From the NCBI GenBank assembly GCA_014799365.1, contig JAAVIF010000069.1, positions 1 to 49,399 on the forward strand: a stretch of DNA of 49,399 nt, in the 5' to 3' direction. The first letter of the stretch is position 1; each line of letters starts with the position of its first letter. The notes under the pieces were generated by a model, which had not been told where the DNA came from, ran no database searches, and saw only the letters and a list, made by a program, of their open reading frames with translations. This document shows, in pieces, positions 342-49,399 of this stretch. A program made the position numbers and the translations under genes. This stretch comes from Oscillospiraceae bacterium (lineage in GTDB: Bacteria > Bacillota > Clostridia > Oscillospirales > Ruminococcaceae).

Positions 342-397
342 ATACCAATCCCTTTTTATACTGACGCAATATCCACAGTTTTAAAAGGGATTGGTAT
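342..397 (+). repeat. Two-hairpin repeat family, short single-hairpin copy a
   Basis: ATACCAATCCC at the left end pairs with GGGATTGGTAT at the right end, and the arm continues as CTTTT/AAAAG. The tip, read on the other strand, is GTGGATATTGCGTCA, similar to the tips of the copies at 494, 20158 and 46187. The rest of 64-417 is AT-rich DNA in which I see no gene. Confidence 0.75.
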
Positions 398-417
398 AAA
401 TACAATAATATCCCCTC

Positions 418-446
418 TTGTATTTTAAATAAAAATGGTGTATAAT
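418..446 (+). promoter_or_regulatory. Candidate sigma-A promoter
   Basis: TTGTAT (418-423), a 17-base spacer, then TATAAT (441-446). It lies between repeat copies a and b and points toward the DUF1858-trmK genes. A transcript starting near 453 would carry repeat copy b in its 5' untranslated region. Confidence 0.5.
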
Positions 447-493
447 AAAACTACATATAATAAAATCAAAGGGCGCAAAAGAATTTTTGGTTT

Positions 494-588
494 ATGCCAA
501 TCCCTTTTTTAAACTGACGAAATACCCACAGTTTAAAAAGGGATTGCACACTAAACACTAATCCAACAGTTTTAAAAGGGATTAGTAT
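494..588 (-). repeat. Two-hairpin repeat family, copy b (reverse orientation)
   Basis: Full-length copy. The first hairpin pairs CAATCCCTTTTTTAAACT with AGTTTAAAAAGGGATTG. The hinge TTGCACACTAAACACTAAT follows, then a second hairpin ending in GGGATTAGTAT. Its end is 48 bases before the DUF1858 start codon, so it sits in that gene's leader. Confidence 0.8.
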
Positions 589-636
589 TAAATGGCAAGA
601 ATATTTTTTAAGCCCTTAAAAAGAAAGGAAAATACC

Positions 637-837
637 ATGGAAATCACAAAAGATACAATTATCGGCGATATTCTCGATTTTAACGCGGAGGCGGCGGCAC
701 CCTTTTTCTTTGAAATGGGAATGCACTGCTTAGGCTGTCCCTCGGCAAGAGGCGAAAGCGTAGCGCAGGCCTGCGCCGTTCACGGAGTTGATCCCGAAGC
801 ACTTGTTTCGAAGCTTAACGACGCTGTAAATAAGTAA
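637..837 (+). CDS. DUF1858 / hybrid-cluster-associated redox disulfide protein
   Basis: A 66-residue protein starting METTI-like at METI-position MEITKD, with a paired-cysteine motif HCLGCP and a further Cys in VAQAC. This is the layout of the small DUF1858 domain, often linked with hybrid-cluster (prismane) proteins and thought to hold a redox disulfide. The start at 637 is preferred over an in-frame ATG at 592: AAGAAAGGAAAA lies just upstream of 637, while 592 abuts a repeat and would add a basic extension not seen in the family. The molecular role is not established. The spacing of 9 bases to trmK suggests co-transcription. Confidence 0.8.
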   Translation: MEITKDTIIGDILDFNAEAAAPFFFEMGMHCLGCPSARGESVAQACAVHGVDPEALVSKLNDAVNK

Positions 838-846
838 TCGGGTCAA

Positions 847-1500
847 ATGAGCTTAAACACCGAAACTGTAAAGAAACCTCAACGGCTTCATTTGGACAGG
901 CGGCTGAAAACCGTTGCCGAAATGGTTCGTCTTGACAAAAGAATTGCCGACATCGGAACAGATCACGCTTTTGTCCCCTGCTACCTTTCAGAGCGGGGGG
1001 CTAAAGGCGTTATTGCCACCGATATTTCCGACGGTCCGTTAGCCTGCGCGAAAGCGACAACGGAGCTGTACGGCATTACGGATATAACGCTTATAAAATG
1101 CGACGGTCTGGATAAGGTACCGCCCGTGGACGATGTTATAATAGCGGGAATGGGCGGAGAGATGATAGCGGATATTATTTCCCGCTGTTCATTTTTGAAT
1201 GGGGATATTCATTTTATTTTGCAGCCCATGACCAAGGACTTTATTTTGCGCCGGGAACTGTATAAAATGGGTCTGGAGATAATAGAGGAAAAAACGGCGG
1301 CGGTTTCAAAAAAGGTGTATACGGTAATGCTTTGCTCATATACGGGAGCAAAGAAAGACATAGACGACGCGTTTGCTTTTATGGGGAAAAATTCCGATAG
1401 GCTTTATCTTGAAAAAGTACTTAACAAGCTGGAAAAAATGGGAAAGGGCGAACCTAAGTATCTTGAATTGAAAAGGGAACTGGAAGAGCGTTTTGTATAG
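847..1500 (+). CDS. trmK: tRNA (adenine-22-N1)-methyltransferase TrmK
   Basis: A 217-residue class I SAM-dependent methyltransferase of the TrmK (YqfN) family, which methylates N1 of adenine 22 in bacterial tRNAs. The SAM-binding motif IADIGTDHAFVPCYL is near residues 34-48 and a second motif, DDVIIAGMGGEMIADI, follows in the first half, both typical of TrmK. Length fits the family at about 220-240. The N-terminus (RLKTVAEMVRLDKR) aligns in layout with known TrmK starts, supporting the ATG at 847 although its ribosome binding site is weak. The gene lies two upstream of nif3, the usual yqfN-yqfO neighbourhood in Firmicutes. Confidence 0.9.
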   Translation: MSLNTETVKKPQRLHLDRRLKTVAEMVRLDKRIADIGTDHAFVPCYLSERGAKGVIATDISDGPLACAKATTELYGITDITLIKCDGLDKVPPVDDVIIAGMGGEMIADIISRCSFLNGDIHFILQPMTKDFILRRELYKMGLEIIEEKTAAVSKKVYTVMLCSYTGAKKDIDDAFAFMGKNSDRLYLEKVLNKLEKMGKGEPKYLELKRELEERFV

Positions 1501-1517
1501 GAAAGGATGTTGTACTC

Positions 1518-2303
1518 TTGAAATTGTTCGGCAAAGGAAAAAAGAATAAAAACGAAGAAAAGCGGGAGGCGGTGCAGCCCGAGAAATCTCCGATACAGAC
1601 AGGCTTTGAAAAAAATCTGAAATTTTTAAACCATGATACATATCCCTTGGATTTTTTTCAAAGCCTGTGGGACGGCAGATTCGGTACGGAAAATTTTACT
1701 GTGGGAGAAGCGGATTTTCCGACGGGTGAAATAGTTCTGGCCGATCCGTTGGCATATTTGGGCAGTAAGTATCAAACCGCTCTTGAAGGCAAAATCCCCG
1801 CGGGAAGCTATTCCGTTGAGCTTTCGATTTTGCGTTCGGAGACGGTCGGCATCAGAGTAGCCGCGGCGCGGCTGAAAATAAAAGAAGCGTGCGCGGCCGA
1901 ATATAAGCTTGCGATGCCTGAGGGTCATACCTCTGAGGATTACAACAAGCCGGGAGTGTTCAGCTTTTTCGGAGTTGACGCGGGAATGGCCTGCTTTGCG
2001 GACAGATCGCTTTCGAAGGAATTTTACGAATTTACAACGGATTGGCATAACGCAAATCCGGGCAAAAATATATATGACGATTATTTTATGGAGCTTTTTG
2101 CCGAAAGCTATAAAAAATATCCCGAGCTGCAAACGCCGTACGGAGATTTTATTCTTTGGCGATTCCCGAAAAGCGGAAACAGGCTGATCATGTTCAGCAG
2201 CGGACTGGGTGACGGAGTTTACAGCGGGTATTGGGCCATGGACGATAAAGGGGAAGCAGCGGAGCTTGTTATACCCTTTATGAATCCCGAATTTTTTTGT
2301 TAG
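1518..2303 (+). CDS. DUF4241 domain protein
   Basis: A 261-residue soluble protein starting at TTG with GGAAAGG about ten bases upstream. After a lysine-rich N-terminus of about 30 residues comes a DUF4241-type domain. Recognisable blocks are TGEIVLADPLAY, IPAGSYSVELSI, IRVAAARLKI, FGVDAGMACFAD and FSSGLGDGVYSGYW. The family has no known function. It sits between trmK and nif3, which are often adjacent, so it looks like an insertion into a conserved pair. No signal peptide or membrane segment is seen. Confidence 0.8.
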   Translation: MKLFGKGKKNKNEEKREAVQPEKSPIQTGFEKNLKFLNHDTYPLDFFQSLWDGRFGTENFTVGEADFPTGEIVLADPLAYLGSKYQTALEGKIPAGSYSVELSILRSETVGIRVAAARLKIKEACAAEYKLAMPEGHTSEDYNKPGVFSFFGVDAGMACFADRSLSKEFYEFTTDWHNANPGKNIYDDYFMELFAESYKKYPELQTPYGDFILWRFPKSGNRLIMFSSGLGDGVYSGYWAMDDKGEAAELVIPFMNPEFFC

Positions 2304-2404
2304 CGGGCAATCGGTTTTTCCATTGCTTTTTATTGCTTTTTTTAAAAATACGGGACTATACTTTACGGCTTTAAAAAATAAAAAACAGAAAGGAAACGGC
2401 GGAA

Positions 2405-3184
2405 ATGACAGTGACAGTAGGAGACGTTTACCGTTATATCGACAGCTTTGCACCCTTTAGCACACAGGACGGCTTTGACAATTCGGGACTTTTGGTAGGC
2501 AGTATGGACGCAACCGTTACAAAAATAGCGGTCTGTCTTGATATTACCAGAAAGGTGGCGGAGGAAGCGGCTTTGCGCGGGGCTGAGCTTATAGTTTCCC
2601 ACCACCCGTTGATTTTTCATAAGCTAAGCGCGATAGAAATACACAATCCCATAAATATTCTTATAAAAAACGGGATCAGCGCGATCTGCGCTCATACCAA
2701 CATCGATATATGCAAAAACGGCATAAGCGACATGATGCTGGAGCTGCTGGAATTCAAGGGGGAAGCAAAGGTGCTGGAGCCCATACACAAGGACGGCAGC
2801 GGTTACGGAAGGATAGTTGAGCTTGATTTTGTGGCGGACGCTTCCGCGCTTGCCGCTGCGTGTAAATCGGCTTTTCACTGCAACACCGTAAGATATTACG
2901 ACAGCGGGCGCATTATAAAAACGGTAGGCGTTTGCTCGGGCGCGGGCGGCAGCGAGGAGAATGTAGCCAACGCCGCCAAAATGGGCTGCGACGCTTTGAT
3001 AACGGGCGACGTTAAGCACAGCGGCTTTGTCGAAGCCCTGAACAGAGGAATCACCTTAATAGACGCGGGACATTTTCATACCGAAAATATTATCTGCGGT
3101 AAAATTTCCGCGGATATTGAAGCGGATCTCGGAATTGAAGCGTTTATTGCTGAAAACAGTGAAGATATATTAAGGTATTGCTGA
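2405..3184 (+). CDS. Nif3-like dinuclear metal-centre protein (YqfO/YbgI family)
   Basis: A 259-residue Nif3 family protein. Metal-centre motifs are visible: DGFDNSGLLVG near the N-terminus, SHHPLIFH, CAHTNIDI, and late TGDVKHSG plus IDAGHFHTEN. The length matches the short form (as in E. coli YbgI) and lacks the PII-like insert of Bacillus YqfO. Family members form hexameric toroids with two metals per subunit. The label GTP cyclohydrolase 1 type 2 is common in databases but the physiological reaction is unsettled. The ATG has GAAAGGAAACGG before it. The stop codon shares its last A with repeat copy c. Confidence 0.9.
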   Translation: MTVTVGDVYRYIDSFAPFSTQDGFDNSGLLVGSMDATVTKIAVCLDITRKVAEEAALRGAELIVSHHPLIFHKLSAIEIHNPINILIKNGISAICAHTNIDICKNGISDMMLELLEFKGEAKVLEPIHKDGSGYGRIVELDFVADASALAAACKSAFHCNTVRYYDSGRIIKTVGVCSGAGGSEENVANAAKMGCDALITGDVKHSGFVEALNRGITLIDAGHFHTENIICGKISADIEADLGIEAFIAENSEDILRYC

Positions 3185-3271
3185 TACCAACCTTTTTAAA
3201 CTATGAAATCCATAGTTTAAAAAGGGTTGCACCCGAAACACTAATCCCACAGTTTTAAAAAGGATTAGTAT
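3184..3271 (-). repeat. Two-hairpin repeat family, copy c (reverse orientation)
   Basis: Starts ATACCAACC on the last base of the nif3 stop codon. The first hairpin pairs TTTTTAAACTATG with CATAGTTTAAAAA. The hinge is TTGCACCCGAAACACTAAT and the second hairpin ends AGGATTAGTAT. It lies between nif3 and rqcH and may affect termination or mRNA stability there. Confidence 0.8.
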
Positions 3272-3354
3272 GAATTCGGTAAAAACGTACACATCGTAAA
3301 AATCTGCGGCAAATACGTTTCTTAAATTTTAATTTTAAAAAGAAAGGGGCCGTT

Positions 3355-5106
3355 ATGTCACTTGACGGAGCGTTTCTCTCATTGGTAAAAAACGAGCTGA
3401 CAGCCAAAGGGCTTATCGGCTCGAGAGTGGATAAAATACATCAGCCCGCGAGAGACGAGCTGACAATAACACTAAGAGGTTTTAACGGCGCGTTCAGGAT
3501 CGCCATGTCCGCCAACCCCTCCGCGGCAAGGGTATGTATAACCGAAGGCATTGCCGACAATCCCCAATCTCCGCCAATGTTTTGCATGCTGTTAAGAAAG
3601 CATTTAAGCGGCGGGCGACTTTTGGATATAACGCAGGAGGGCTTGGAAAGAGTACTGGCGTTTGATTTTGAATGCGTAAACGAAATAGGGGATATTGTTC
3701 GCAACCGCCTTTCGGTGGAGCTTTTGGGCAGGTGCAGCAATATAATACTGCTTACCGAAAAAAACGGGGAAATGCGTGTGGTGGACAGCATTAAGCGCAT
3801 AGGCGACGATGTTTCCGCAATCAGGCGTATTTTGCCCGGGATACTTTACGAAGCTCCTCCGAAAGAGGACAGGCTTGATCTGCGCTTTTGCACAGCCGAG
3901 GAAGCAAAAGAACGGCTTTTGGTTTTCCCGGAGCAAAAGCTTGAAAAAACGCTTATAAAGGTATTTGAGGGAGTAAGCCCTGTTTTGTGCAGGGAATGGG
4001 CTTTTTATACCGCAAGGGATATTGACGTGCCCTGTAATTGCCTTTCAGACAAAGAGCGTTTTCAACGGTTTGAATTCTTTTTGAACAGGCTTAAAAACGC
4101 TCTTTCGGTTTCTCAGTCGGAGAGCTGCGCAAAATTTGTGACTGTATACGATAAAAACGGAAAGCCGATCGATTTTACCTTTGTTCCCACAGAGCAGTAC
4201 GGCGCGGCAATGATACAAAAGGAATTTGATTCGCCCTCAAAGCTTCTTGACGGATTTTTCTCGGGAAGGGCCCGGGCGGAGCGCATGAAGCAGCGTTCTG
4301 GCGATTTGTTGAAATCGATTTTGGCCATATATAACAGAACCGCAAAAAAGCTGGAGCTGCAAAAGGGCGAGCTTGCGGCCTGCGGGGAACGGGAGGTATT
4401 CCGAGTCCGCGGCGATCTTCTTTCCGCCAATATCTACCGCATGGAAAAGGGAATGAACGAAATAACGGTGGATAATTACATTACGGGGAAGCCCGAGACC
4501 ATAAAGCTTGACGTAAGACTTACCCCCTCGCAGAACGCGCAGAAGTGCTATAATGAGTACAAGAAGCTTGATACCGCGGAAAAAATGCTGACTAAGCTTA
4601 TCGAAAAGGAAAAGCAGGAGCTTGTTTACTTGGACAGCGTTTTCGATTCGGCGGCAAGAGCGCAGACCGACGCGGAATTGCAGGAAATACGCCTGGAGCT
4701 GTCGGGAGAGGGGTATCTCAAAAAGGGCAAAAACAAGACTTCAGATAAGGCGGTAAAGCCCTTGCAGCCTATCAAGCTTAAATCCAAGGACGGCTTTGAC
4801 ATATGGGTGGGCAGAAACAATCTGCAAAACGACAGACTTACACTTAAAACCGCCAAGGGCGAGGATTTGTGGCTGCACACCAAGGATATACCGGGAGCGC
4901 ATGTTATAGTTTTCGCCAAGGGTAGGGAAATACCCGACAGCACCATAGTTGAAGCGGCGCAGATTGCCGCTTCAAATTCAAAGGCGAAGGGACAGACGAA
5001 AATTCCCGTGGACTATACTAAGGTAAGGTATGTTAAAAAGCCTAACGGGGCGAAGCCGGGAATGGTTATTTTTACAAATAATAAGACGATTTTGGTGGAC
5101 GGGTAG
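3355..5106 (+). CDS. rqcH: Ribosome quality-control factor RqcH (NFACT family)
   Basis: A 583-residue NFACT protein, the bacterial Rqc2/NEMF homologue. It binds split 50S subunits carrying stalled peptidyl-tRNA and directs alanine tailing. The N-terminal NFACT-N domain covers roughly residues 1-270 (opening GAFLSLVKNELTAKGLIGSR), a helical coiled region spans about 300-430, and the NFACT-R domain (about 460-560) carries DIWVGRNNLQNDRLTLK and LWLHTKDIPGAHVIV. It ends at a typical DYTKVRYVKKPNGAKPG segment. Older annotations call this family fibronectin-binding protein; no export signal is present. AAGAAAGGGG precedes the ATG. Confidence 0.93.
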   Translation: MSLDGAFLSLVKNELTAKGLIGSRVDKIHQPARDELTITLRGFNGAFRIAMSANPSAARVCITEGIADNPQSPPMFCMLLRKHLSGGRLLDITQEGLERVLAFDFECVNEIGDIVRNRLSVELLGRCSNIILLTEKNGEMRVVDSIKRIGDDVSAIRRILPGILYEAPPKEDRLDLRFCTAEEAKERLLVFPEQKLEKTLIKVFEGVSPVLCREWAFYTARDIDVPCNCLSDKERFQRFEFFLNRLKNALSVSQSESCAKFVTVYDKNGKPIDFTFVPTEQYGAAMIQKEFDSPSKLLDGFFSGRARAERMKQRSGDLLKSILAIYNRTAKKLELQKGELAACGEREVFRVRGDLLSANIYRMEKGMNEITVDNYITGKPETIKLDVRLTPSQNAQKCYNEYKKLDTAEKMLTKLIEKEKQELVYLDSVFDSAARAQTDAELQEIRLELSGEGYLKKGKNKTSDKAVKPLQPIKLKSKDGFDIWVGRNNLQNDRLTLKTAKGEDLWLHTKDIPGAHVIVFAKGREIPDSTIVEAAQIAASNSKAKGQTKIPVDYTKVRYVKKPNGAKPGMVIFTNNKTILVDG

Positions 5107-5149
5107 TATAATTTTTCCGTTTGATGTATCATAATTTCAATAAAAGGGC

Positions 5150-6029
5150 GTGAAAATTGTGGATTTTGATAAAGAAATGAAAGTTATTATGTACAAGGCG
5201 GAAAATGAAGATATTACGATAAATGCTGTCGTCAAGGGCGAAAGCATATGGCTTACGCAAAGAGCAATGGCGGAGCTTTTTGATTGTTCCTCGGACAATA
5301 TATCCCTTCATTTAAAAAATATTTACTCCGAGGGAGAGTTGGTTTATGAATCAACTGCCGAGAAAATCTCGGTAGTTCAAACCGAAGGAAACAGGCAAGT
5401 AAAAAGGTCTGTTGATCACTATAATCTTGACGCGATAATTTCCGTAGGCTACCGCGTAAACTCTCGGCGCGCCACCCAATTCCGCATATGGGCGACCAAA
5501 GTCCTTAAGGAATATATGATAAAGGGCTTCGCCATGGACGATGAAAGATTGAAGCAGGGGAAAGCCCTTTTCGGCAAGGATTATTTCCGTGCCCTGCTTG
5601 AACGTGTGCGTTCAATCAGGGCAAGCGAGCGCAGAATCTGGCAGCAGGTCACCGATATTTTTGCGGAGTGCAGCATTGACTACGATAAAAGCTCCGATAC
5701 GGCATATAAATTTTATTCCTCAATACAAAATAAGTTCCATTATGCCATTACGGGAAAAACGGCAGCGGAAATCGTATATGATACAGCGGATCACAAAAAG
5801 GAAAATATGGGGCTTACCACTTGGAAAAACGCTCCCGACGGACGTATTTTAAAATCCGACGCGGGAATAGCGAAAAATTACCTTGATGAAAAACAAAGGA
5901 AGAGTTTCGCATAAGGAAGCGCAGGACAAGGCTTACGCCGAATATGACATTTTCAATAAAACTCAAAAAATAGAATCCGATTTCGATAAAGCAATAAAGG
6001 CAATGCTTAAAAATAACGGCAATACATAA
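5150..6029 (+). pseudogene. RhuM-family gene with internal deletion and frameshift
   Basis: The reading frame 5150-5914 (GTG start; an ATG at 5177 is an alternative) encodes a RhuM-type protein, with SIWLTQRAMAELF at the N-terminus and ITGKTAAEIVYDTADHKK later. It stops just after KSDAGIAKNYLDEKQ. From 5898 another frame continues GRVSHKEAQDKAYAEYDIFN and IESDFDKAIKAML to a TAA at 6027, which is the expected RhuM C-terminus. From memory of the family, about 45-50 codons between these blocks are missing. RhuM proteins are accessory genes of uncertain function, named from a Salmonella pathogenicity island. The product is likely non-functional unless the truncated form has a role. Confidence 0.75.
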
Positions 6030-6065
6030 AATAAAAGGTACAAGAAATAAAGAAAAGGGGGAAAA

Positions 6066-6479
6066 ATGACCTATAAAAAATATCCCGATGAAGAAACGGT
6101 AAACGGATACATCAAGAAAAAAGAACCGCTGATTATTGCTATTCCATTTGACGAAAACGAGCCTGTGCTGCTGTCTCTGCTTGACGACAGCTTTGAGCAT
6201 CATATTCTTCTTTCGCACTTCGGGTTAAATCCCGATTATATTGATAGGTATTACCGAATAGTTGCGGACGAGGAATCTGCGGAATGGACCTTTGTCTGCC
6301 CTGCCGATTACCGCGGGATAAAAGACAGGCAAAAAAGAATTATCCGTTTTTATAACGACGGCTTTACGGCGATTTCCAGCATTCTGTCGGATATTGGCTA
6401 CTTCTCCGATATAAGGATACCCAAAAGATACAGACGTCATTTTGACGCTATGGGCGACGATAGCGTATACATGCCTTAA
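6066..6479 (+). CDS. Hypothetical protein, 137 aa
   Basis: An acidic, soluble 137-residue protein that I do not recognise. It opens MTYKKYPDEETVNGYIKKK and has no signal peptide or membrane segment. A good Shine-Dalgarno (AAAAGGGG) lies just before the ATG. It follows the broken RhuM gene by 36 bases and precedes valS by 33, so it could be accessory DNA brought in with RhuM or a lineage-specific gene. No catalytic motif is visible. Confidence 0.65.
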   Translation: MTYKKYPDEETVNGYIKKKEPLIIAIPFDENEPVLLSLLDDSFEHHILLSHFGLNPDYIDRYYRIVADEESAEWTFVCPADYRGIKDRQKRIIRFYNDGFTAISSILSDIGYFSDIRIPKRYRRHFDAMGDDSVYMP

Positions 6480-6512
6480 TAAAAGTTAAAAAAGAAAGGA
6501 CATAAACAACAT

Positions 6513-19579: not shown

Positions 19580-20158
19580 ATGAGTAAGAATAAAACGTCT
19601 GCCGCTCCAAGGAAAGGATTTAAGGAATTTATCCGCAAGTTTTTTGTTTCCTTGAAGCGCAGCCCGCAGAATATTGCAATGGTTGCTTTAGCCGCGGCGT
19701 TTCTTGTTTATTCCCTTAATTTGACCGCGATCTCAAATACCACCGCAAGAATAAACTCACCCAATATGGGACAGTGCGAATTTGCGGCAATGCTGTTTTC
19801 TATCCTTGCCTTTGTCTGCTTTCTCAGGTCGTTTCCGAAACGGCAGAAGCCGAACATGATAATGCTGGGACTGCTCTTTCTGATGCTGATCGGCCTGGTA
19901 TTTGTAGATTGTGTATACCTTACAAGAATAACTCAGGCAGTAATGCGTGCCGACAATCCCTTGGTAATAAATGTTGACACCGCATATGTCGCAATTGCAA
20001 ACAACACTATTGTGGCGCACATTGTGTGCGTGGCCATTTGCGCGGTTTTGGTAGCCACATTGCCTATTTACGGAAAGCTCTTGAAGAAAATAAACACCTC
20101 TATCGAGGTCGAAGGCAACGGAGACATGGAGGTTATAGACATTTCCGGCGAGGACTGA
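19580..20158 (+). CDS. Small four-helix membrane protein of the ABC operon (third)
   Basis: A 192-residue protein. A basic N-terminal segment (about residues 1-32, rich in Lys/Arg) is followed by about four hydrophobic helices and an acidic tail ending ISGED. No domain recognised. It follows the ABC ATPase by 20 bases with AAGAAGGAG before the ATG. Its stop codon shares one base with repeat copy d. Confidence 0.65.
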   Translation: MSKNKTSAAPRKGFKEFIRKFFVSLKRSPQNIAMVALAAAFLVYSLNLTAISNTTARINSPNMGQCEFAAMLFSILAFVCFLRSFPKRQKPNMIMLGLLFLMLIGLVFVDCVYLTRITQAVMRADNPLVINVDTAYVAIANNTIVAHIVCVAICAVLVATLPIYGKLLKKINTSIEVEGNGDMEVIDISGED

Positions 20159-20250
20159 TACTAATCCCTTTTTAAAATGCGGATTAGTGTTTCGGATGCA
20201 ATCCGATTTTAACCCTTGGGTATTACGTCAGATTAAAATCGGATTGGGAT
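20158..20250 (+). repeat. Two-hairpin repeat family, copy d
   Basis: Starts ATACTAATCCC on the last base of the preceding stop codon. Hairpin 1 closes with GGATTAGT. The hinge is GTTTCGGATGCAAT. Hairpin 2 pairs ATCCGATTTTAA with TTAAAATCGGAT, with the tip GGGTATTACGTCAG. Note that the hairpin-2 arm differs from the usual CCCTTTTTAAACT yet is fully paired. Confidence 0.8.
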
Positions 20251-21026: not shown

Positions 21027-22568
21027 ATGATAAATATACTTTTTGTGGGCTCTGTTTCCGCCTGCTTTGAATTGGAAAACCGTTCGGCATACTATAACGA
21101 TACCGAATATAAGGTCAGCCTGGACGGCAAGGAGCTGTTTTCGGCACGCACCAACGTTTTTTCACTGTTCGGCCTTAAGCCCGACAGAGAATACACGCTT
21201 GAGGCAAGCGGTCACGGAATAGTAAAATTTACTACCGCAAAGGAGACCTGCGCTGTAAACGTTAAGGACTTCGGCGCGGTGGGCGACGGAGAACATGACG
21301 ACACCATAAGCATTCAGACTGCGATAAACTGTCTCCCCTGCGGCGGAAGACTGTATTTCCCCGAGGGAAGGTACAGTACCGCTCCCCTTAATTTAAAAAG
21401 TCATATCGTTATCGAGCTTTCCGAAAAAGCGGTTTTGCTCGGTGTGACCGATACCGAACGCTATCCCGTTATACCCGGCGCGCTTACCGATATTGAAAGC
21501 GGCGAGCTGATTCAGTTAGGCACATGGGAGGGCAATTCCGTTCCAATGCACCAAGCCCTTTTGTTTGCCGAATACGCCGAGGATATCCGGATAGTTGGCA
21601 AGGGTACGATAGACGGCAACGCGCAAAACAGCGAATGGTGGGTCAATGTTAAGGAGCGCGAGACAGGAAGGCCGAGGCTTTTATTTACCAACCGCTGCAA
21701 AAATATTGTTTTACACGGAGTTACCGTTCAGAATGCGGCTTCATGGCAGCTTCACCCATATTTCTCTCAAGACTTAAGCTTTTTGGACGTTTCGGTAAAC
21801 GCGCCAAAGGACAGCCCCAACACCGACGCGCTTGACCCCGAGGCCTGCGATAACGTTAATATTATCGGCTGCAAATTCAGCGTAGGCGACGACTGCATAG
21901 CCATTAAATCGGGCAAGATCGAGCTGGGTAAAATGTATAAGACCCCCGCTAATCATCATACGATCAGAAACTGCTTAATGCAGTTCGGTCACGGCGCGAT
22001 CACCTTGGGCAGCGAAATGGCGGGAGGCGTCAAAAATCTTACCGTAAACCGCTGCATCTTCAATCACACCGACAGAGGACTGCGCATAAAGACCCGCCGC
22101 GGCAGAGGAAAGGACGCGGTTATTGACGGGGTACTGTTTGAAAATATCAAAATGGACGGCGTTTTGACACCTATTGTTATAAATATGTGGTACAACTGCT
22201 GCGATCCTGACCGTTATTCCGAATACAATACCACAAGAGAAAAGCTGCCTGTTGACGACAGAACACCTTATCTCGGCAAGTTCACCTTCAGGGATATGAT
22301 TTGCGAAAACTGTCAGGTCGCCGCCTGCTACTGCGACGGACTTCCCGAGCAGCCTATCGAGGAAATCACGGTGGAGAATATAAAGTTCACCTACGATGAA
22401 AACGCTAAGGAAGGCGTTCCCGCTATGAGGAACAACGCTGAAAAAATGTGCAGGGCGGGAATGTATTTCGATAACGTTAAAAAGCTTGTTGTTAAAAATA
22501 TTGATATAAGCGGAAACGAAGGCGCAAATCTTATTGTAAGCCATGTGGACACTCTTGTAAAGGAATAA
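21027..22568 (+). CDS. Polygalacturonase (glycoside hydrolase family 28)
   Basis: A 513-residue GH28 enzyme that hydrolyses alpha-1,4 bonds of polygalacturonate or oligogalacturonides. An N-terminal beta domain (about 1-75) precedes the parallel beta-helix, which opens VKDFGAVGDGEHDDT. All catalytic motifs are present: NTD (265-267), DD (288-289), GHG (321-323) and RIK (353-355). The extra N-terminal domain resembles exo-acting relatives. No signal peptide is visible, so action in the cytoplasm on imported oligomers is likely. AGGAAAGGA precedes the ATG. Its stop overlaps the next start (TAATG). Confidence 0.93.
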   Translation: MINILFVGSVSACFELENRSAYYNDTEYKVSLDGKELFSARTNVFSLFGLKPDREYTLEASGHGIVKFTTAKETCAVNVKDFGAVGDGEHDDTISIQTAINCLPCGGRLYFPEGRYSTAPLNLKSHIVIELSEKAVLLGVTDTERYPVIPGALTDIESGELIQLGTWEGNSVPMHQALLFAEYAEDIRIVGKGTIDGNAQNSEWWVNVKERETGRPRLLFTNRCKNIVLHGVTVQNAASWQLHPYFSQDLSFLDVSVNAPKDSPNTDALDPEACDNVNIIGCKFSVGDDCIAIKSGKIELGKMYKTPANHHTIRNCLMQFGHGAITLGSEMAGGVKNLTVNRCIFNHTDRGLRIKTRRGRGKDAVIDGVLFENIKMDGVLTPIVINMWYNCCDPDRYSEYNTTREKLPVDDRTPYLGKFTFRDMICENCQVAACYCDGLPEQPIEEITVENIKFTYDENAKEGVPAMRNNAEKMCRAGMYFDNVKKLVVKNIDISGNEGANLIVSHVDTLVKE

Positions 22569-23419
22569 TGAGAAAGAGTAAAAGGGCGGCGGCTCTTATT
22601 TTGGCACTGCTTGTTTTAACAGGCTGCGGCGGCAGACTTGACGAATCCGCCCTCGGAGATTTCGACCTGATCTCCGAATATATGAAAACTCATGCGGAGG
22701 CAATTATTACGGATACAACAAAAATATTTGAATGTGACGCCCGGGCGATAAGCGGGAACGCAAACGCCGAGCAAATAACGAATCTGTATCTTGAATCCTT
22801 TGCAGCCGGAAAGGAAAATGGGTATGTTCCCGTTTTGGTTTTCCTTGATGATATTCTTGAAAGAGAAATAAACTTGTTCTTTGAAGATAAAGACAGGGAA
22901 TCGTATTTACAAGAAACGTTATCTTCCGAGAGAACGGACGGAAAAGGGCTGCTTGACAAACGTTATTCCGAATTGGAGGAGTATTTTGGCGAGGAGCTGT
23001 TAATAAATGACGCCGAGCTTGATACTATGCTTTCATTGTACGGAAATTCGGTCGGCGGAAAGCTTTTGCCGTCAACCGATCACTATGACGGGGAAATGTA
23101 TCTGGTAAAAGTGCCTGCCGATAATCCCTTTGAAGTCTTTGCTTGGCTGCCCTTTGGCGGCTGGAATGAATGTCCCGGCACAAATGAAATGATTTCAATA
23201 TGCGAATATTGGTACAAAGAATACGGTGCCGTTCCCGCGGCAATAACCCGCGATACTTTGACATTTTATTTAAGCGATCCCGTTTCCGATAAAGCGGCAG
23301 CGGTAAAGGCGGCCAAAGAGCAATGCGCTTTTTCAAGCGAGGTGCTTGGAATGGGCGGTATAAGCTCCTATGTGCTAATGACCTTGAACAGTAATGTCTG
23401 GACTTTTTGGTGGGACTAA
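22568..23419 (+). CDS. Lipoprotein of unknown function
   Basis: A 283-residue protein whose signal peptide ends in the lipobox VLTGC around residue 20, so it should be anchored outside the membrane. The mature part is acidic, with no recognised domain. Translation is coupled to the polygalacturonase gene through a TAATG junction. A lipoprotein inside an otherwise cytoplasmic enzyme operon could help in substrate capture, but nothing in the sequence proves that. Its stop codon overlaps repeat copy e by one base. Confidence 0.7.
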   Translation: MRKSKRAAALILALLVLTGCGGRLDESALGDFDLISEYMKTHAEAIITDTTKIFECDARAISGNANAEQITNLYLESFAAGKENGYVPVLVFLDDILEREINLFFEDKDRESYLQETLSSERTDGKGLLDKRYSELEEYFGEELLINDAELDTMLSLYGNSVGGKLLPSTDHYDGEMYLVKVPADNPFEVFAWLPFGGWNECPGTNEMISICEYWYKEYGAVPAAITRDTLTFYLSDPVSDKAAAVKAAKEQCAFSSEVLGMGGISSYVLMTLNSNVWTFWWD

Positions 23420-23511
23420 TACTAATCCCTTTTAAAACTGTTGGATTAGTGTTTAGGGTGCAACCCTTTTTAAACTATGAATTTTTCCATAGTTTAAAAA
23501 GGGATTGGTAT
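23419..23511 (+). repeat. Two-hairpin repeat family, copy e
   Basis: Starts ATACTAATCCC on the last base of the lipoprotein stop codon. It carries hinge ATTAGTGTTTAGGGTGCAA and hairpin 2 AAACTATG/CATAGTTT with the tip AATTTTTC, and ends GGGATTGGTAT. It is nearly identical to copy g at 39,858. Confidence 0.85.
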
Positions 23512-23512: not shown

Positions 23513-23674
23513 AGAACATGTTCCAATAGGATTGGCGCGCGTCTTTCCGGCGAAATTTTCCGTGCTCTTCGTCAGAAAATCTTGAAATACGTCAAGTATT
23601 CCTGCGCTTTTCTTCCTTGATCACGAAAAATTTCGCTCGAGAATCCGCACACCCCTCCTATTAGAACAAGTTCT
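23513..23674. repeat. Second inverted-repeat family, long copy
   Basis: The ends AGAACATGTTCCAATAGGA and TCCTATTAGAACAAGTTCT are imperfect inverted repeats. An inner pair, GCGAAATTTTCCGTG and CACGAAAAATTTCGC, forms another stem. The element abuts repeat copy e directly. A shorter relative lies at 36,094. It resembles a small non-autonomous mobile or palindromic intergenic element, with no coding capacity. It lies between the lipoprotein and GH105 genes. Confidence 0.75.
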
Positions 23675-23704
23675 CAAAAAACAAAAAATGAGAGGGCAAC
23701 AACA

Positions 23705-27323: not shown

Positions 27324-27435
27324 ATACTGATTCTATCTTAAAAAGGTTTTACCTTTTTAAGATAGAATCACACCCAAAGCACTATTTCTAAATTAACCTC
27401 TAAAATTTACAATCATTTTAATTTAGAAATAGTAT
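27324..27435 (-). repeat. Two-hairpin repeat family, divergent copy f (reverse orientation)
   Basis: Keeps ATACT/AGTAT ends and the hinge (read forward, TAGTGCTTTGGGTGTGAT), but both arms have new sequence: GATTCTATCTTAAAAAGG pairs with CCTTTTTAAGATAGAATC, and TATTTCTAAATT pairs with AATTTAGAAATA. Paired arms with changed sequence are strong evidence that the structure is what is conserved. It lies between the AEC carrier and kduD. Confidence 0.8.
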
Positions 27436-36093: not shown

Positions 36094-36168
36094 AGAACAT
36101 GTCCCAATAGGATCGACGCACGTCTTTTCGGCGAAATTTTGCACATCACACCTATTGGAACAGGTTCT
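36094..36168. repeat. Second inverted-repeat family, short copy
   Basis: AGAACATGTCCCAATAGGA and CCTATTGGAACAGGTTCT are the ends, with GCGAAATTTTGC in the middle. The left half closely matches the copy at 23,513, but about 85 bases of its interior are absent. It lies between uxaB and uxaA, 36 bases before the uxaA start codon. Confidence 0.75.
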
Positions 36169-39837: not shown

Positions 39838-39857
39838 ATATGACGATATTATTTCTG

Positions 39858-39950
39858 ATACTAATCCCTTTTAAAACTGTTGGATTAGTGTTTAGGGTGC
39901 AACCCTTTTTAAACTATGGATTTTTCCATAGTTTAAAAAGGGATTGGTAT
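39858..39950 (+). repeat. Two-hairpin repeat family, copy g
   Basis: Starts ATACTAATCCC, carries the hinge ATTAGTGTTTAGGGTGCAA, has hairpin 2 AAACTATGG/CCATAGTTT and ends GGGATTGGTAT. It is almost identical to copy e at 23,419. It lies between the uxaC terminator and the convergent GH25 gene. Confidence 0.85.
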
Positions 39951-39963
39951 GAAATTATAATGG

Positions 39964-41246: not shown

Positions 41247-41258
41247 ATTTTGATGTGC

Positions 41259-41609: not shown

Positions 41610-41660
41610 AGTATACGGCAAATCGAACGATCGGCGCGGGCTTATGGAAAGGTACATAAA

Positions 41661-44114: not shown

Positions 44115-44127
44115 GGCGGGAAAATAC

Positions 44128-44955: not shown

Positions 44956-45033
44956 CCGAATAAAGATAAAGTAAAAAAGAATAAAGATAAAACGAAAAAA
45001 CGGAACAAAATCGAAAGGAAAACAAAAGACAAA

Positions 45034-46167
45034 ATGAAAAATCTACTGGGAATTATTTACGGTGCGGTGTTCGGCGTTGCCAACGTCATACCGGGAGTCA
45101 GCGGCGGCACCATGCTGGTGGCATTCGGCTGCTACGACAAGGTGTGCGGCGCGCTGGCATTGGATTTTAAAGAGATCAAGAAAAATATAAAATTCCTGAT
45201 TTTCTTTGCAATAGGCGCGGCACTTGGCATTGTTGGCTTTTCAAATATAATAACGCTGCTTTTTGAAAAATTCCCCACCGAAACCTATATGTTTTTTATC
45301 GGGCTTATCTTGGGCAGTGTACCTCTTATTATAAGAAACGCCACTATAAAGGAAAAGTTCCGCCCCGTTTGCGCTGTACCGTTTATTATTGCGCTGGGCT
45401 TGGTAATAGGATTGGCGGTTTTGGAAAATAGCTCCTCCGATCCTATGCCCGTGACGGAGGAGAGTATAGGTAATGATTATTACGAGATCACGGTTACCAA
45501 TAACAGCAGTCAGACTGTTAATGAATGGTGGCTCGAAATAGAGGGGGATCGTAACCATGACGGTTTCGGGGGAATATTTGATTTTTATTCCAACGATGAA
45601 AGCGTTAAGGTAACAAACAAACAGGGATTTATCGATAAGCTTATGGGAAAATCGGGCGATGATGTAATAGTACCTGCGGGAAGCGCGGAAATAAAGCCGG
45701 GCGAATCGGTAACCTTTACGATTTATGTATCGGATTACTTTATTTTGACCCCAAAATACAGCTACACCATAACCCCGATGTTTATTGCAACAATAATTCT
45801 TGCATCCTTTGCGGCGGCGGTGGCAATGATAATCCCCGGAGTAAGCGGTTCATTTATAATGGTGCTTTTGGGAACATACTCAACCGTTATTTCCGCCGTT
45901 AAGGATTTCAACTTTGCCGTAATTATCCCCACTGCCGCGGGTGTGCTTTTAGGCTTGGTATTCGGGGCAAAGCTTATAAGGCTGCTTCTTAACAAGGCTC
46001 GCTTAATGGTATTCAGCGCGATTTTGGGAATGTGCGCGGGCTCGCTGTACGCCATACTGCCCGAGGGCTTCGGATTAAACATTGACACACTGATAGGCGT
46101 GTTTGCTTTGGTACTTGGCGGAGTAATTTCATATTTTGTGGGAAAGAATACTAAGGTCGAGGAATAA
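45034..46167 (+). CDS. DUF368 membrane protein (undecaprenyl-phosphate translocase type) with inserted domain
   Basis: A 377-residue DUF368 protein. The two repeated signature loops are ANVIPGVSGGTMLVAFG (about 16-32) and AMIIPGVSGSFIMVLLG (about 264-280). DUF368 proteins were recently linked to recycling undecaprenyl phosphate across the membrane (PopT). Between the two halves, residues about 131-245 form an extra hydrophilic, beta-rich domain (YEITVTNNSSQTVNEWWLEI and IKPGESVTFTIYV) that ordinary members, about 270-310 residues, lack. The domain reads like a cellulose-binding or Ig-like fold and should face outward. AAAGGAAAAC precedes the ATG. Confidence 0.87.
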   Translation: MKNLLGIIYGAVFGVANVIPGVSGGTMLVAFGCYDKVCGALALDFKEIKKNIKFLIFFAIGAALGIVGFSNIITLLFEKFPTETYMFFIGLILGSVPLIIRNATIKEKFRPVCAVPFIIALGLVIGLAVLENSSSDPMPVTEESIGNDYYEITVTNNSSQTVNEWWLEIEGDRNHDGFGGIFDFYSNDESVKVTNKQGFIDKLMGKSGDDVIVPAGSAEIKPGESVTFTIYVSDYFILTPKYSYTITPMFIATIILASFAAAVAMIIPGVSGSFIMVLLGTYSTVISAVKDFNFAVIIPTAAGVLLGLVFGAKLIRLLLNKARLMVFSAILGMCAGSLYAILPEGFGLNIDTLIGVFALVLGGVISYFVGKNTKVEE

Positions 46168-46186
46168 ATCCGTAACGCCGCATTTA

Positions 46187-46242
46187 ATACTAATCCCTTT
46201 TTGAACCGTGGGTATTACGTCAGTTCAAAAGGGAATTGGTAT
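46187..46242 (+). repeat. Two-hairpin repeat family, short copy h
   Basis: ATACTAATCCCTTTTTGAACC pairs (one bulge) with GTTCAAAAGGGAATTGGTAT in a single hairpin. The tip GTGGGTATTACGTCAG is shared with copies b and d. Located 19 bases after the DUF368 stop. Confidence 0.75.
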
Positions 46243-46302
46243 TACAAAAAATTACAGCCGCAAACAAATCACCGACTATTCAAATGAAAGGACGGTCACA
46301 AT

Positions 46303-47076
46303 ATGAAATATCAAGATTTACGCAAAAACGGCGAAACCGTAGTTCACACCTCCAAGATCGAGGTGTTGGAGTATGACGGCGTTGCATACAAGCTGTTCGA
46401 TAAATCCTTCCCCCGTACACAGATTTTTTACGAAGCTATGCTTCAGACCAAAGCGGAGGAGCAGGGAATACGAGTGCCCAAAATCTACGGCGTCGAACAG
46501 ATAGACGATCGTCTGGCTATATTATCCGAATATATCGAGGGTCAGACCGTATTGGAGCTTATGGACGAAAACCCCGCCAAAAAGGATTATTATTTAAATA
46601 TCCTTTTGGATACTCAGCTCAGCATAAACACGCACATTGTCGGCGATATTGTCAAGCTTAAGCATAAGATGGCAAGAGTAATAAAAACGCTTCCCTTTAT
46701 CGACGATATTAAAAGATACGAGCTTGAGACCCGTCTTGCTTCCATGCCCAAGCACAGCAAGCTTTGTCACGGAAATTTCGGCCCCGAAAACGTACTGATA
46801 GACGGCATGGACAAGGTGATAGTTCTGGACTGGGTAGCTTCCTCACGCGGTAACGCGGGGGCGGACGTTGCAAGGACCTATCTTAAGCTTACTCTTATAT
46901 CCACCGAGCTTGCGGAACGCTACATAACCCTGTTTTGTCAAAAATCGGGCTATGACAGGCAATATGTATATGAATGGCTTCCCCTTATTGCCGCCTGCGG
47001 TCTCGGGGAGAAAAATATTTCGGAAAGTGAAAAAGCCGTAATGCTCAGTTGGCTTGACGTGGTAGACTACAATTGA
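46303..47076 (+). CDS. Aminoglycoside phosphotransferase-like kinase, catalytic Asp replaced
   Basis: A 257-residue protein of the APH/choline kinase fold. The hinge region has LSEYIEGQTVLELMDE. The catalytic loop, normally HGDxxxxN, is HGNFGPEN (H156, N158, N163), so the catalytic Asp is Asn. The metal-binding Asp is present (D176 in VLDWVA). Real substrates of such chromosomal members are usually unknown and no drug resistance should be assumed. The next gene starts in a TGATG overlap, so the two are translationally coupled. Confidence 0.8.
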   Translation: MKYQDLRKNGETVVHTSKIEVLEYDGVAYKLFDKSFPRTQIFYEAMLQTKAEEQGIRVPKIYGVEQIDDRLAILSEYIEGQTVLELMDENPAKKDYYLNILLDTQLSINTHIVGDIVKLKHKMARVIKTLPFIDDIKRYELETRLASMPKHSKLCHGNFGPENVLIDGMDKVIVLDWVASSRGNAGADVARTYLKLTLISTELAERYITLFCQKSGYDRQYVYEWLPLIAACGLGEKNISESEKAVMLSWLDVVDYN

Positions 47077-48017
47077 TGGAAATTATCTCGCGGATCGTTA
47101 TCATGGCACTGCTTATCGCGGTGGGAGTTATTTGCCAAAAAACAAAAATAATCGGAAATGAGGTAAACAAGGGTATTTCCGATATTGCGCTCAAGGTATC
47201 TACTCCCGCGCTGCTGGTAAGCTCATTTCAGCAGGAATTAAACGCGGAGCGGCTCCAAAGATTGGGCTACGCCGCGCTTCTTGCGGTAATCGCAATACTT
47301 TTCGCGGCGGTATTGGGCTATCTTTGTATACCCAAGGTCAGAAACAGATCAAAGGACGATAACGGCAGGCTTTCGATTGAACGCTTTTCCGCGATTTACA
47401 GCAACTGTGCCTTTATGGGTATACCTTTAATCAATGGTATTTACGGCGATGAGGGAGTGTTTTACCTTACCGCCTTTTATGCGTTATTCAATATAGCAGT
47501 CTGGACTCACGGAGTTATCATGATGAAGGGTGAAACGGGAGTAAGACAGGTGCTGAAAGCCCTCGCAAGCCCCGCTCTGATAGGCATAGTGATAGGAGCG
47601 GCACTGTTTTTCCTGCAAATATCCCTTCCCGATGTTATCAAACAGGCTCTCGATTACGCGGGTTCTATGACTACTCCCTTGGGTATGCTGGTTGCGGGCG
47701 TTACCATTGCTCAGACAAACCTGCCGGGCGCGTTAAAAAAGCTGAAAATTTATTATATAAGCGCGTTGAGGCTTATTATTATACCCGTTTTGACGATCGT
47801 CCTGTTTTTGTTATTCCCGTTTGACGAAACGGTAATGGGTGTAACAGTTGCGGCCGCGGCTTGTCCCGCCGCCACTATCTGCACTATGTTTGCCATAAGC
47901 TTCAACAAGGACAGCTTGTATGCGGGGGAGATTTTTGCGGTTTCCACGGTGCTGTCGGCGGTTTCCTTGCCGCTTATAATGTGGTTGTTTGATTTCTTTA
48001 ACGGATTTATAAGATAG
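47076..48017 (+). CDS. AEC family transporter (second)
   Basis: A 313-residue AEC carrier with about ten helices. The half-repeat signature SNCAFMGIPLINGIYG is clear, and the C-terminal half has AAAACPAATICTMFAIS. The ATG at 47,076 (TGATG overlap with the kinase-like gene) is chosen over a TTG at 47,073. The substrate is unknown; coupling to a kinase-like gene suggests metabolite transport plus phosphorylation, but this is inference. It resembles the carrier at 26,257 only in fold. Confidence 0.87.
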   Translation: MEIISRIVIMALLIAVGVICQKTKIIGNEVNKGISDIALKVSTPALLVSSFQQELNAERLQRLGYAALLAVIAILFAAVLGYLCIPKVRNRSKDDNGRLSIERFSAIYSNCAFMGIPLINGIYGDEGVFYLTAFYALFNIAVWTHGVIMMKGETGVRQVLKALASPALIGIVIGAALFFLQISLPDVIKQALDYAGSMTTPLGMLVAGVTIAQTNLPGALKKLKIYYISALRLIIIPVLTIVLFLLFPFDETVMGVTVAAAACPAATICTMFAISFNKDSLYAGEIFAVSTVLSAVSLPLIMWLFDFFNGFIR

Positions 48018-48086
48018 TATCTTTTTTATAATGATTTATGTTCGGATTAAGAGAAAATAAAACCGCTGAAAAATGGAGGTTAATGT

Positions 48087-49091
48087 GTGGCAAAAGCTCA
48101 TAATCAAAAGCGCAGATTATTGATTTTAGCGCGGATATTCAGAGAGGAAACCGACGAAAATCACGGTCTGTCTCTTGCGCAGCTTGAAGCTCTTCTAAGC
48201 GAATACGGCGCGGAAAGCGAAAGAAAAACAATGTACAGCGATATTGAGGCTTTGCGCGACGCGGGTATTGACATTGTAGCGGACAAGCAGGCGAGAAACA
48301 CTACATATTTTTTGGCAAGCAGAGAATTTGAGCAGCCCGAGCTGTACTTGCTTGCAAACGCTGTCGCAAGCTGTAAATTTATAAGCAGCCGAAAATCGGT
48401 TCAGCTTATTAAAAAAATTTCGGCTATCGCGGGAAAATACGAGGGGAAAAAGCTCATACGTCAGATAACTGTAAGCGACCGCGTTAAATCCACCAACGAA
48501 AGTATTTATTATAATATCAACTACATAAACGAAGCCATTTCGGCAGGGAAAAAAATCAGCTTTTTGTATTTCAATTATAATGAAAAAAAGAAAAAAGTGT
48601 ATCACAATGATAAAAAGCCGTTGGTGATCTCGCCGAGAGCGTTGGTGTGGAAAGACGAAAACTACTATGTAACAGGTTACTACGTGAAGCGCAGAAAGCA
48701 TGTGGATTTTCGTGCGGACAAAATGGAAAAGGTAGAGATATTAAACGAAAAAAGCTATAAAGACCCCGGCTTTGACATTGACGATCATTGCAGCAGACGT
48801 TTCGGCATGTTCGGCGGCGAGCTTACAAGAGTAAAGCTGCGTTTTGACAACTCACTGGCAGGCGTGGTTATTGACAGATTCGGGCTAAAAACACATTTTG
48901 TTGATATGGGAAGCGGCTTTGAAATAGAAACCGAGATCGATCTCAGCCCCACCTTTTACGGCTGGCTGTTCCAGTTCGGAAGCAAGGCGCAGATCGTAGG
49001 CCCGCCAAGCGTCAGAAACGAGTTCAAACAGTTTGCGGAGGATACATTAAAGCAGTACGGGCTTAAATCCGGCGGTCATTGCGGGATTTAA
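48087..49091 (+). CDS. WYL-domain transcriptional regulator
   Basis: A 334-residue regulator. The N-terminal helix-turn-helix (about 8-65) includes LSLAQLEALLSEYGAESE and TMYSDIEALRDAGIDI. The central WYL domain (about 150-235) has ISFLYFNYNEKKKK, PRALVWKDENYYVTGYY and VDFRADKMEKVEIL. A C-terminal WCX segment follows. WYL domains sense ligands, including nucleotides. The start is GTG, set 7 bases after GGAGG. It could regulate the adjoining AEC/kinase pair. Confidence 0.88.
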   Translation: MAKAHNQKRRLLILARIFREETDENHGLSLAQLEALLSEYGAESERKTMYSDIEALRDAGIDIVADKQARNTTYFLASREFEQPELYLLANAVASCKFISSRKSVQLIKKISAIAGKYEGKKLIRQITVSDRVKSTNESIYYNINYINEAISAGKKISFLYFNYNEKKKKVYHNDKKPLVISPRALVWKDENYYVTGYYVKRRKHVDFRADKMEKVEILNEKSYKDPGFDIDDHCSRRFGMFGGELTRVKLRFDNSLAGVVIDRFGLKTHFVDMGSGFEIETEIDLSPTFYGWLFQFGSKAQIVGPPSVRNEFKQFAEDTLKQYGLKSGGHCGI

Positions 49092-49100
49092 CGGGGGTTT

Positions 49101-49226
49101 ATACTAATTGAAAATCATATTGTAGACAAATTTTACAGGGTCTACAATATGATTTTCAATTACACCCTAAACACTAATTTCCAATCGACAGCAAAATTTG
49201 TCTATACTTTGATTGGAAATTAGTAT
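49101..49226 (-). repeat. Two-hairpin repeat family, divergent copy i (reverse orientation)
   Basis: ATACTAAT/ATTAGTAT ends and the hinge ATTACACCCTAAACACTAAT are kept, but both arms are new: TTGAAAATCATATTGTAGAC pairs with GTCTACAATATGATTTTCAA, and TTTCCAATC pairs with GATTGGAAA. It starts 9 bases after the WYL gene. Confidence 0.8.
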
Positions 49227-49228
49227 TA

Positions 49229-49283
49229 CATTACAGTCATGATTCATAACCACCTTTCAGACAAAATTTTACAGGGTCTGTAA
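49229..49283. repeat. Degenerate hairpin related to copies i and j
   Basis: ATTACAG and CTGTAAT are the outer ends. Inside, CAGACAAAATTTTACAGGGTCTG is a hairpin whose tip matches the tip of copy i. It lacks the hinge, so it may be a decayed copy. Confidence 0.45.
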
Positions 49284-49399
49284 TACTAATATCTGTTTAA
49301 AAAGTGGATAAAATGGCTTTTTAAACAGATATTAGTGCTTAGGGTGTAACTCTGTTTTGACAGTAGACCCTGTTCTGTTTTGTCTACTGTCAAAACAGA
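49283..49399 (+). repeat. Two-hairpin repeat family, copy j (cut by window end)
   Basis: Starts ATACTAATATCTGTTTAAAA, pairing with TTTTAAACAGATATTAGT. The hinge is ATTAGTGCTTAGGGTGTAAC. Hairpin 2 pairs CTGTTTTGACAGTAGAC with GTCTACTGTCAAAACAG. The final GTAT end lies beyond the window. Confidence 0.75.

What the first reader, a model, noticed from the sequence alone, without database searches (positions are those of the whole stretch)
342..49399. Family of about ten structured intergenic repeats (two hairpins, constant hinge)
Copies at 342, 494, 3184, 20158, 23419, 27324, 39858, 46187, 49101 and 49283 share ATAC/GTAT ends, two self-complementary arms and, in full copies, the hinge ATTAGTGTTTAGGGTGCAA or a close variant. 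They occur in both orientations, only between genes, at about one per 5 kb. I do not recognise a described element with this architecture. It could be a non-autonomous mobile element (MITE or REP type), an mRNA stability element or a DNA-structure site.
Basis: seen in the sequence. Interest (0 to 1): 0.85.

Follow-up and report, generated by a model that had tools for sequence, protein, structure and literature searches.

The report
Two-hairpin mobile repeat with fixed hinge
This is a family of tiny jumping DNA elements, present in well over a hundred copies in this bacterium's genome, built as two hairpins joined by one fixed short sequence, that insert at the three letters T-any-A and quite often land exactly on a gene's stop codon without breaking the gene.

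Summary
Plan: TNA|TACYAAT - hairpin 1 - GYTTNGGGTG - hairpin 2 - ATTRGTA|TNA. New here: (1) identical 3-bp TNA flanks (target duplications) in 123 of 156 complete copies, and in 7 of 7 complete two-hairpin copies of the window. (2) Arms fall into unrelated sequence families yet stay paired, with no excess of G-T over A-C mispairs, so the palindrome is kept at DNA level. (3) The hinge, with 0-1 mismatch, is in 14 of 14 copies found without using it. (4) Insertion is oriented (TRA 88, TYA 23). (5) Copies sit on stop codons in 17 of 101 cases against 6.8 expected; the 23419 site is empty in two related species. At least 8 of 71 genus genomes carry it. No transposase with matching ends was found. 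REP/RAYT origin is unlikely: duplications exist, and Y1 transposase is absent from two of the three richest genomes. Most likely moved in trans by an unidentified DDE transposase; IS5/PIF-Harbinger is the nearest footprint.

The parts
342..397 (.). single-hairpin copy (A type), no hinge; flanks CAA/TAA
494..588 (-). two-hairpin copy (A type); duplication TTA
3184..3271 (-). two-hairpin copy (A type); duplication TGA; sits on the stop codon of the NIF3-family gene 2405-3184
20158..20250 (+). two-hairpin copy (A type, diverged); duplication TGA; sits on the stop codon of ORF 19580-20158
23419..23511 (+). two-hairpin copy (A type); duplication TAA; sits on the stop codon of the DUF4253 gene 22568-23419; site empty in orthologues of G007 and G015
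27324..27435 (-). two-hairpin copy (D type); duplication TTA
39858..39950 (+). two-hairpin copy (A type); duplication TGA; identical to 11 others in the fetched DNA
46187..46242 (.). single-hairpin copy (A type), no hinge; flanks TAA/TTA
49101..49226 (-). two-hairpin copy (C type); duplication TTA
49283..49399 (+). two-hairpin copy (B type), right end cut off by the contig end; left flank TAA

Best explanation
A family of MITEs of about 85-128 bp (plus single-hairpin forms of about 45-67 bp) that moves as DNA, cut and joined in trans by a DDE transposase. Shown: ends TACYAAT...ATTRGTA; a 3-bp TNA duplication; arms that differ between subfamilies but stay paired; an all but invariant hinge; identical copies at many places; an empty site in relatives. 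Inferred: the left and right outer arms (about 18 bp) are the transposase binding sites; the inner arms are inverted copies whose tips have changed (CACTA and GTGYAAT in place of TACTA and TACYAAT), so only the outer tips are cut and the pair of hairpins travels as one unit; the hinge is a fixed sequence that the transposition complex needs, and the complex tells the hairpin-1 end from the hairpin-2 end, which sets the insertion orientation at targets leaning to RnRTYTNA. Because TAA and TGA fit the target and are duplicated, insertion on a stop codon leaves the upstream protein whole; such copies survive and are over-represented.
For: Copy number: 173 hinge matches vs 6 in the control; model matches at the 150 ceiling. 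Duplication: 123 of 156 complete copies with identical TNA, of which 111 of 132 two-hairpin and 12 of 24 single ones; in an earlier set 99 of 132 two-hairpin copies equal vs mean 46, maximum 63 in 2000 shuffles. One copy nested in another copy's hinge with TTA duplicated. Pairing across families: covariation score 0.589 vs 0.171 shuffled, slid versions at most 0.246; 93.9% of cells paired. DNA rather than RNA: mispairs G-T 39, A-C 51. Left and right outer arms agree at 9.1 of 12 positions within an element vs 5.9 between families. Hinge in 14 of 14 copies found without it. Orientation 88:23. Stop codons 17 of 101 vs 6.8. Empty orthologous sites. 12 identical copies; one sequence shared by G000 and MAG Mgla_MAG_6-bin_38.
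Against: A symmetric DDE complex would not set orientation, so the 88:23 bias is not explained by the simple model. Single-hairpin forms show weak duplications (8 of 19 equal, chance 6.1). Likeness of left and right arms could also be common descent, and one complete copy with rather unlike ends (L084, 7 of 12) has a duplication. The role of the hinge is inference.
Confidence: 0.72

Rival explanations
1. REPIN-like element: two hairpins moved as single-stranded DNA by a REP-associated tyrosine transposase (TnpA/RAYT).
For: Two hairpins in mirror order, high copy number; oriented insertion with a target that leans to RnRTY on the hairpin-1 side only, as in IS200/IS605 systems (recalled). G032, G036, G103 and G007 (fragment) do have Y1 matches.
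Against: Correlated TNA on both sides; ends TAC/GTA, no GTAG/CGTC tag; Y1_Tnp matches in 20 of 71 genus genomes but in neither G000 nor G015, two of the three richest carriers.
Confidence: 0.07
2. Structure-recognised transposition: the enzyme reads the folded two-hairpin form through tips and hinge, and arm sequence is largely free, as in integron attC sites (recalled).
For: Arms differ completely between families while pairing, tips and hinge stay. A copy with unlike ends has a TTA duplication (L084).
Against: Left and right outer arms resemble each other within an element (9.1 vs 5.9 of 12). All 106 copies with a duplication agree at 6 or more positions; the five at 5 or less lack it, but four of those are truncated or wrongly bounded.
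Confidence: 0.16
3. A selected host element acting in RNA (terminator, mRNA stabiliser, small RNA).
For: Often just downstream of stop codons; stable hairpins. 26 of 101 sites lie between convergent and 10 between divergent genes (no null computed).
Against: Mispairs G-T 39 vs A-C 51, no RNA bias; one-sided changes 8 of 603 cells; both orientations; not found in most of the genus; no terminator-like match on the two complete two-hairpin copies in the 10.4 kb scanned, though two promoter-like matches overlap copies there; no Rfam match in the window.
Confidence: 0.05

Closest known systems
BOX elements of Streptococcus pneumoniae (PMC3049150, passages seen)
   Same: High-copy, modular, hairpin-forming, terminal inverted repeats and target duplications, over-represented between convergent genes, found inserted in one another
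   Different: BOX varies by its boxB modules; here a fixed hinge joins two hairpins whose arms come in several families, with TNA duplications. No sequence comparison was made
RUP (same passages) and Correia-type MITEs (recalled)
   Same: Small non-autonomous elements thought to be moved in trans (RUP by IS630-Spn1)
   Different: TA duplication (recalled); no two-hairpin plus hinge plan (recalled)
REP/REPIN with RAYT (PMC3733652, passages seen)
   Same: Palindromes, often dimers, stem families that differ, ends that often supply a stop codon to the flanking ORF
   Different: GTAG or CGTC tag; Y1 transposase for the GTAG type; no target duplication (recalled); 'Firmicutes' and 'Clostrid' do not occur in that main text
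IS5 family / PIF-Harbinger transposons (3-bp Harbinger duplications: passages of PMC12730594; TNA for IS5 subgroups: recalled)
   Same: 3-bp duplication of TWA/TNA type
   Different: The IS5-type ends that could be read here differ (G007 AGACCTCCTCGGAAACTAATT; G032 AGAACCTGTACCAATA; G000 GGGCGTATCTGAAAACTC); ends of the other hits were not determined

Membership tests
MITE (non-autonomous DNA transposon) | short, terminal inverted repeats, no room for a transposase gene | tested here: met
   56-128 bp; ends TACYAAT/ATTRGTA plus subfamily arms
MITE (non-autonomous DNA transposon) | target site duplication | tested here: met
   TNA in 123 of 156; 99 of 132 vs 46 by chance; weak for single-hairpin forms
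MITE (non-autonomous DNA transposon) | high copy number and presence/absence between relatives | tested here: met
   absence shown between species, not between strains
MITE (non-autonomous DNA transposon) | autonomous element with the same ends | tested here: inconclusive
   none found in the families and stretches searched; genomes are drafts
IS5 / PIF-Harbinger derived | 3-bp TNA/TWA duplication | tested here: met
IS5 / PIF-Harbinger derived | transposase of that family with the same terminal repeats | tested here: inconclusive
   none found; three IS5-type ends that could be read differ, others undetermined; not filed as a member
REPIN/RAYT | Y1 (TnpA) transposase in the genome | tested here: not met
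   0 matches in G000 and G015
REPIN/RAYT | GTAG/CGTC tag; no target duplication (the latter recalled) | tested here: not met
   ends TAC/GTA; duplications present
Rfam RNA family | gathering-score match | tested here: not met
   0 matches in the window
BOX | boxA/boxB/boxC sequence | not tested
   no alignment to BOX modules was made

The most novel reading that the evidence does not exclude
A transposition system whose substrate is defined by fold, tips and a fixed hinge, while the hairpin arms evolve freely in concert; the complex tells the two ends apart, inserts in one orientation at RnRTYTNA, and so colonises stop codons as safe sites.
Probability: 0.19. Interest if true: 0.82.

Novelty: new variant of a known kind. 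Interest (0 to 1): 0.58.

Why it matters
It gives a dense natural data set on how minimal transposon ends evolve: many arm families, one hinge, one target rule. It shows how a 3-bp TNA duplication can make stop codons safe landing sites. If the transposase is found, the role of the hinge and the orientation rule can be tested directly. Many contigs of these draft genomes end inside a copy, so the family also matters for assembly.

Tried and rejected
Autonomous partner: sought by Pfam families (Y1), by pairs of ends 250-6000 or 250-8000 bp apart, by an inverted-repeat scan round transposase genes, by end pattern in G007 and in 71 genus genomes (both lists capped), and at contig ends of G007 and G032. 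The candidates that I opened were module recombinants, host genes between two copies, or a longer hairpin element. IS256, IS110, IS630, IS982, IS1595, IS66 and other families were not searched.

Truncated copies (L008, L017, L021, L033): ORF lists read by eye, nothing taken for a transposase; no family search was run on them. Viral contigs: hinge 0, A end 0, C end 0; a shorter B pattern gave 44 hits, taken as chance and not inspected. Plasmids and phages: no match, one query each. Literature: searches showed no paper on this element in their listings; only 30 of 442 were listed and reverse-strand strings could be missed; only open-licence papers are held. Of PMC3049150, PMC3733652, PMC7031236 (not used) and PMC12730594 passages were seen.

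RNA function was tested by mispair type. There the stems were grown without gaps for best match, so the 97% Watson-Crick share is partly by construction; only G-T against A-C is used. The local null for stop codons (21 of 123 against 4.2) counts coding sites and was replaced by the intergenic null (17 of 101 against 6.8), which leaves out 22 copies inside crude ORFs.

Limits: most loci were fetched by hinge match, so hinge conservation in the 132 is biased; one search is the test free of that and, being strict, found only 14. Some of the 156 have wrong boundaries (for example HP1 clusters 7, 9, 11, 13) and were kept. Seven two-hairpin copies with N or over 140 bp were dropped (125 of 132 used). 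Of the five copies with unlike ends and no duplication, four are truncated or wrongly bounded and one (L062) is a complete hybrid, so this is weak support for arm recognition. On rechecking that, I moved the odds slightly: best explanation 0.75 to 0.72, fold reading 0.15 to 0.16, novel case 0.17 to 0.19.
Full report
What is there. Eight are two-hairpin copies (one cut by the contig end) and two are single hairpins of 56 bp. Read in the hinge direction a full copy is ATACTAAT-arm-loop-arm-ATTAGT, then GYTTNGGGTG, then YAA-arm-loop-arm-TTRGTAT. Six copies folded as single-stranded DNA give two hairpins and an open hinge. Rfam has no match in the window.

Copy number and range. The hinge pattern, with up to one mismatch, occurs 173 times in the own genome against 6 for the reversed pattern. 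A covariance model from 32 copies reaches the scoring ceiling of 150 in G000 and G032, and finds 137 in G015, 58 in G036, 40 in G007, 14 in G049, 13 in G055, 4 in G103 and 0 in the four others of the 12 genomes given. A longer hinge pattern matched in 9 of 99 genomes, the own one included; two of the nine have one match each, without arms, that reads as chance. No match in the other 51 same-genus genomes nor in the 39 of the order. The A-type end occurs in 7 of 71 genus genomes, one of them by a single two-mismatch hit. A scan of named species genomes with an exact 19-letter hinge gave 22 stretches: 17 of MAG Mgla_MAG_6-bin_38 (Oscillospiraceae; bank vole by the label, recalled), four of MAGs labelled Clostridia, Ruminococcus, Eubacteriales and Ruminiclostridium, all four with arms, and one Chitinophagaceae contig that is an unrelated tandem repeat. 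That scan may leave out records near the window's own genome.

Mobility. In 156 non-redundant complete copies from the fetched DNA, 123 have the same three bases TNA on both sides (TAA 58, TTA 54, TGA 10, TCA 1): 111 of 132 two-hairpin and 12 of 24 single copies. In an earlier set the triplets were equal in 99 of 132 two-hairpin copies against a mean of 46 and a maximum of 63 in 2000 shuffles, and in 8 of 19 single ones against 6.1, which is not convincing. In the window, 7 of 7 complete two-hairpin copies have it and 0 of 2 single ones. One copy sits inside the hinge of another, and taking it out with one TTA restores that hinge. Twelve fetched copies at different places are identical, and another sequence is shared by G000 and the Mgla MAG. 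The copy at 23419 begins on the TAA stop of a gene whose DUF4253 domain ends at the last residue. The orthologous genes in G007 and G015 end at the same residue with TGA and no element. These are other species, so presence/absence is shown between species.

Arms, pairing and hinge. At 70% identity the 132 two-hairpin copies give 14 hairpin-1 and 17 hairpin-2 clusters, some of them artefacts of wrong boundaries, in many combinations. Across 32 diverse copies the invariant columns lie in the tips, the hinge and the stem bases next to them. Yet 93.9% of pair cells stay standard pairs, with all four Watson-Crick types at some positions and a covariation score of 0.589 against 0.171 in shuffles and at most 0.246 when slid. 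The structure was named by me from these copies, which favours it against the slid versions. Only 8 of 603 cells are one-sided changes, and among mispairs G-T is not commoner than A-C (39 and 51). This fits a palindrome kept at the DNA level, by transposase binding or by copying of one arm from the other, and does not fit selection on RNA. In 726 kb scanned without using the hinge, ends plus duplication plus two hairpins picked 14 elements, and all 14 had the hinge with 0 or 1 mismatch, against 4-6 in shuffled elements; the reversed-sequence control gave none.

Ends. The outer left and right arms of one element agree at 9.1 of 12 positions against 5.9 between families (125 of 132 copies). All 106 of these with a duplication agree at 6 or more; the five at 5 or less lack it, but four of the five are truncated or wrongly bounded. 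A complete hybrid without duplication (L062) and a complete, rather unlike pair with TTA duplication (L084, 7 of 12) stand on either side. Arm recognition by a transposase is likely but not proved; common descent would also make the arms alike.

Target. Read in the hinge direction the duplicated triplet is TAA 80, TGA 8, TTA 21, TCA 2, so TRA to TYA is 88:23 (p 4e-10). The flank on the hairpin-1 side leans to RnRTY (mean 2.77 and 2.70 of 4 for TRA and TYA) more than the mirrored other side (2.25 and 1.74). Insertion is thus oriented. Copies sit exactly on stop codons in 17 of 101 usable cases against 6.8 (sd 2.3) expected from TNA sites of the same intergenic stretch (p about 4e-4). Gene calls were crude ORFs of at least 80 codons. 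Survival of harmless insertions explains this without any preference for stop codons.

What moves it. No partner was found. DDE_Tnp_1 matches occur in all five carriers given and DDE_Tnp_4 in three of seven, but the own genome has one DDE_Tnp_1 fragment only, next to a copy of the family whose right tip it seems to have interrupted. rve has no match in G007, ISL3 none in the five given. Y1 is in 20 of 71 genus genomes but not in G000 or G015. Carrier drafts are 76-98% complete with collapsed repeats, so absence is weak evidence. A DDE transposase with a 3-bp stagger is the best reading of the duplication; IS5/PIF-Harbinger is the nearest footprint (Harbinger: passages of PMC12730594; TNA for IS5 subgroups is recalled). 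It is not filed as a member.

Mechanism proposed. A two-hairpin copy looks like two single-hairpin elements set side by side whose inner tips have changed, so that only the outer tips are cut and the pair moves as one. The hinge is then the fixed junction, kept because the complex needs it. Steps shown: duplication, ends, pairing, hinge, orientation, stop codons. Steps inferred: enzyme type, binding to arms, role of hinge and inner tips.

Comparison. BOX of pneumococcus is nearest in kind: modular, with duplications, between convergent genes (PMC3049150, passages). REP families also vary in stem sequence, and GTAG REP ends often supply a stop codon to the flanking ORF (PMC3733652, passages), so contact with stop codons has a precedent by another mechanism. 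Verdict: a new family of a known kind (MITE) with an uncommon plan and an orientation rule that deserves a test.

Noticed in passing
window 23513-23677 and 36094-36140: A second repeat family with end AGAACATGTYCCAATAGG lies directly next to the 23419 copy and again at 36094; it matches in other genus genomes, also in G014 and G048 which have no hinge match, and its end resembles that of an 844-bp IS5-type element in G032 (L106, AGAACCTGTACCAATA).
   Followed up: partly
L002 1367-1651: A longer element with the same tips and a TTA duplication but several other hairpins inside, with an A-type copy nested in it; the tip family is wider than the two-hairpin plan.
   Followed up: no
L135 about 4190-4500: Chitinophagaceae tandem repeat of a unit like AACACTAGTGTTTAGGGTGCA, which matches the hinge string but shows no hairpin arms of this family.
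   Followed up: partly
L174 1145-1262: In G007, two hairpin-1 units in a row joined by a hinge, which suggests module duplication or template switching.
   Followed up: no
L266 6475-6580 and the matching part of L265: Next to IS5-type fragments in G007, repeated units with a very short hydrophobic ORF that looks like a small membrane toxin of type I systems (recalled resemblance).
   Followed up: no
L268 3919-4011: Another copy placed exactly on the TGA stop of ORF 2731-3921 in G000.
   Followed up: no
contig ends of G000 and G015: Many contigs end inside a copy of the family, so the repeats probably break these assemblies.
   Followed up: no
window 39932-39961 and 49130-49159: Promoter-like consensus matches (10 of 12) overlap two copies; 30 such matches were found in the region against 20.4 in shuffles, so they may be chance.
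   Followed up: no
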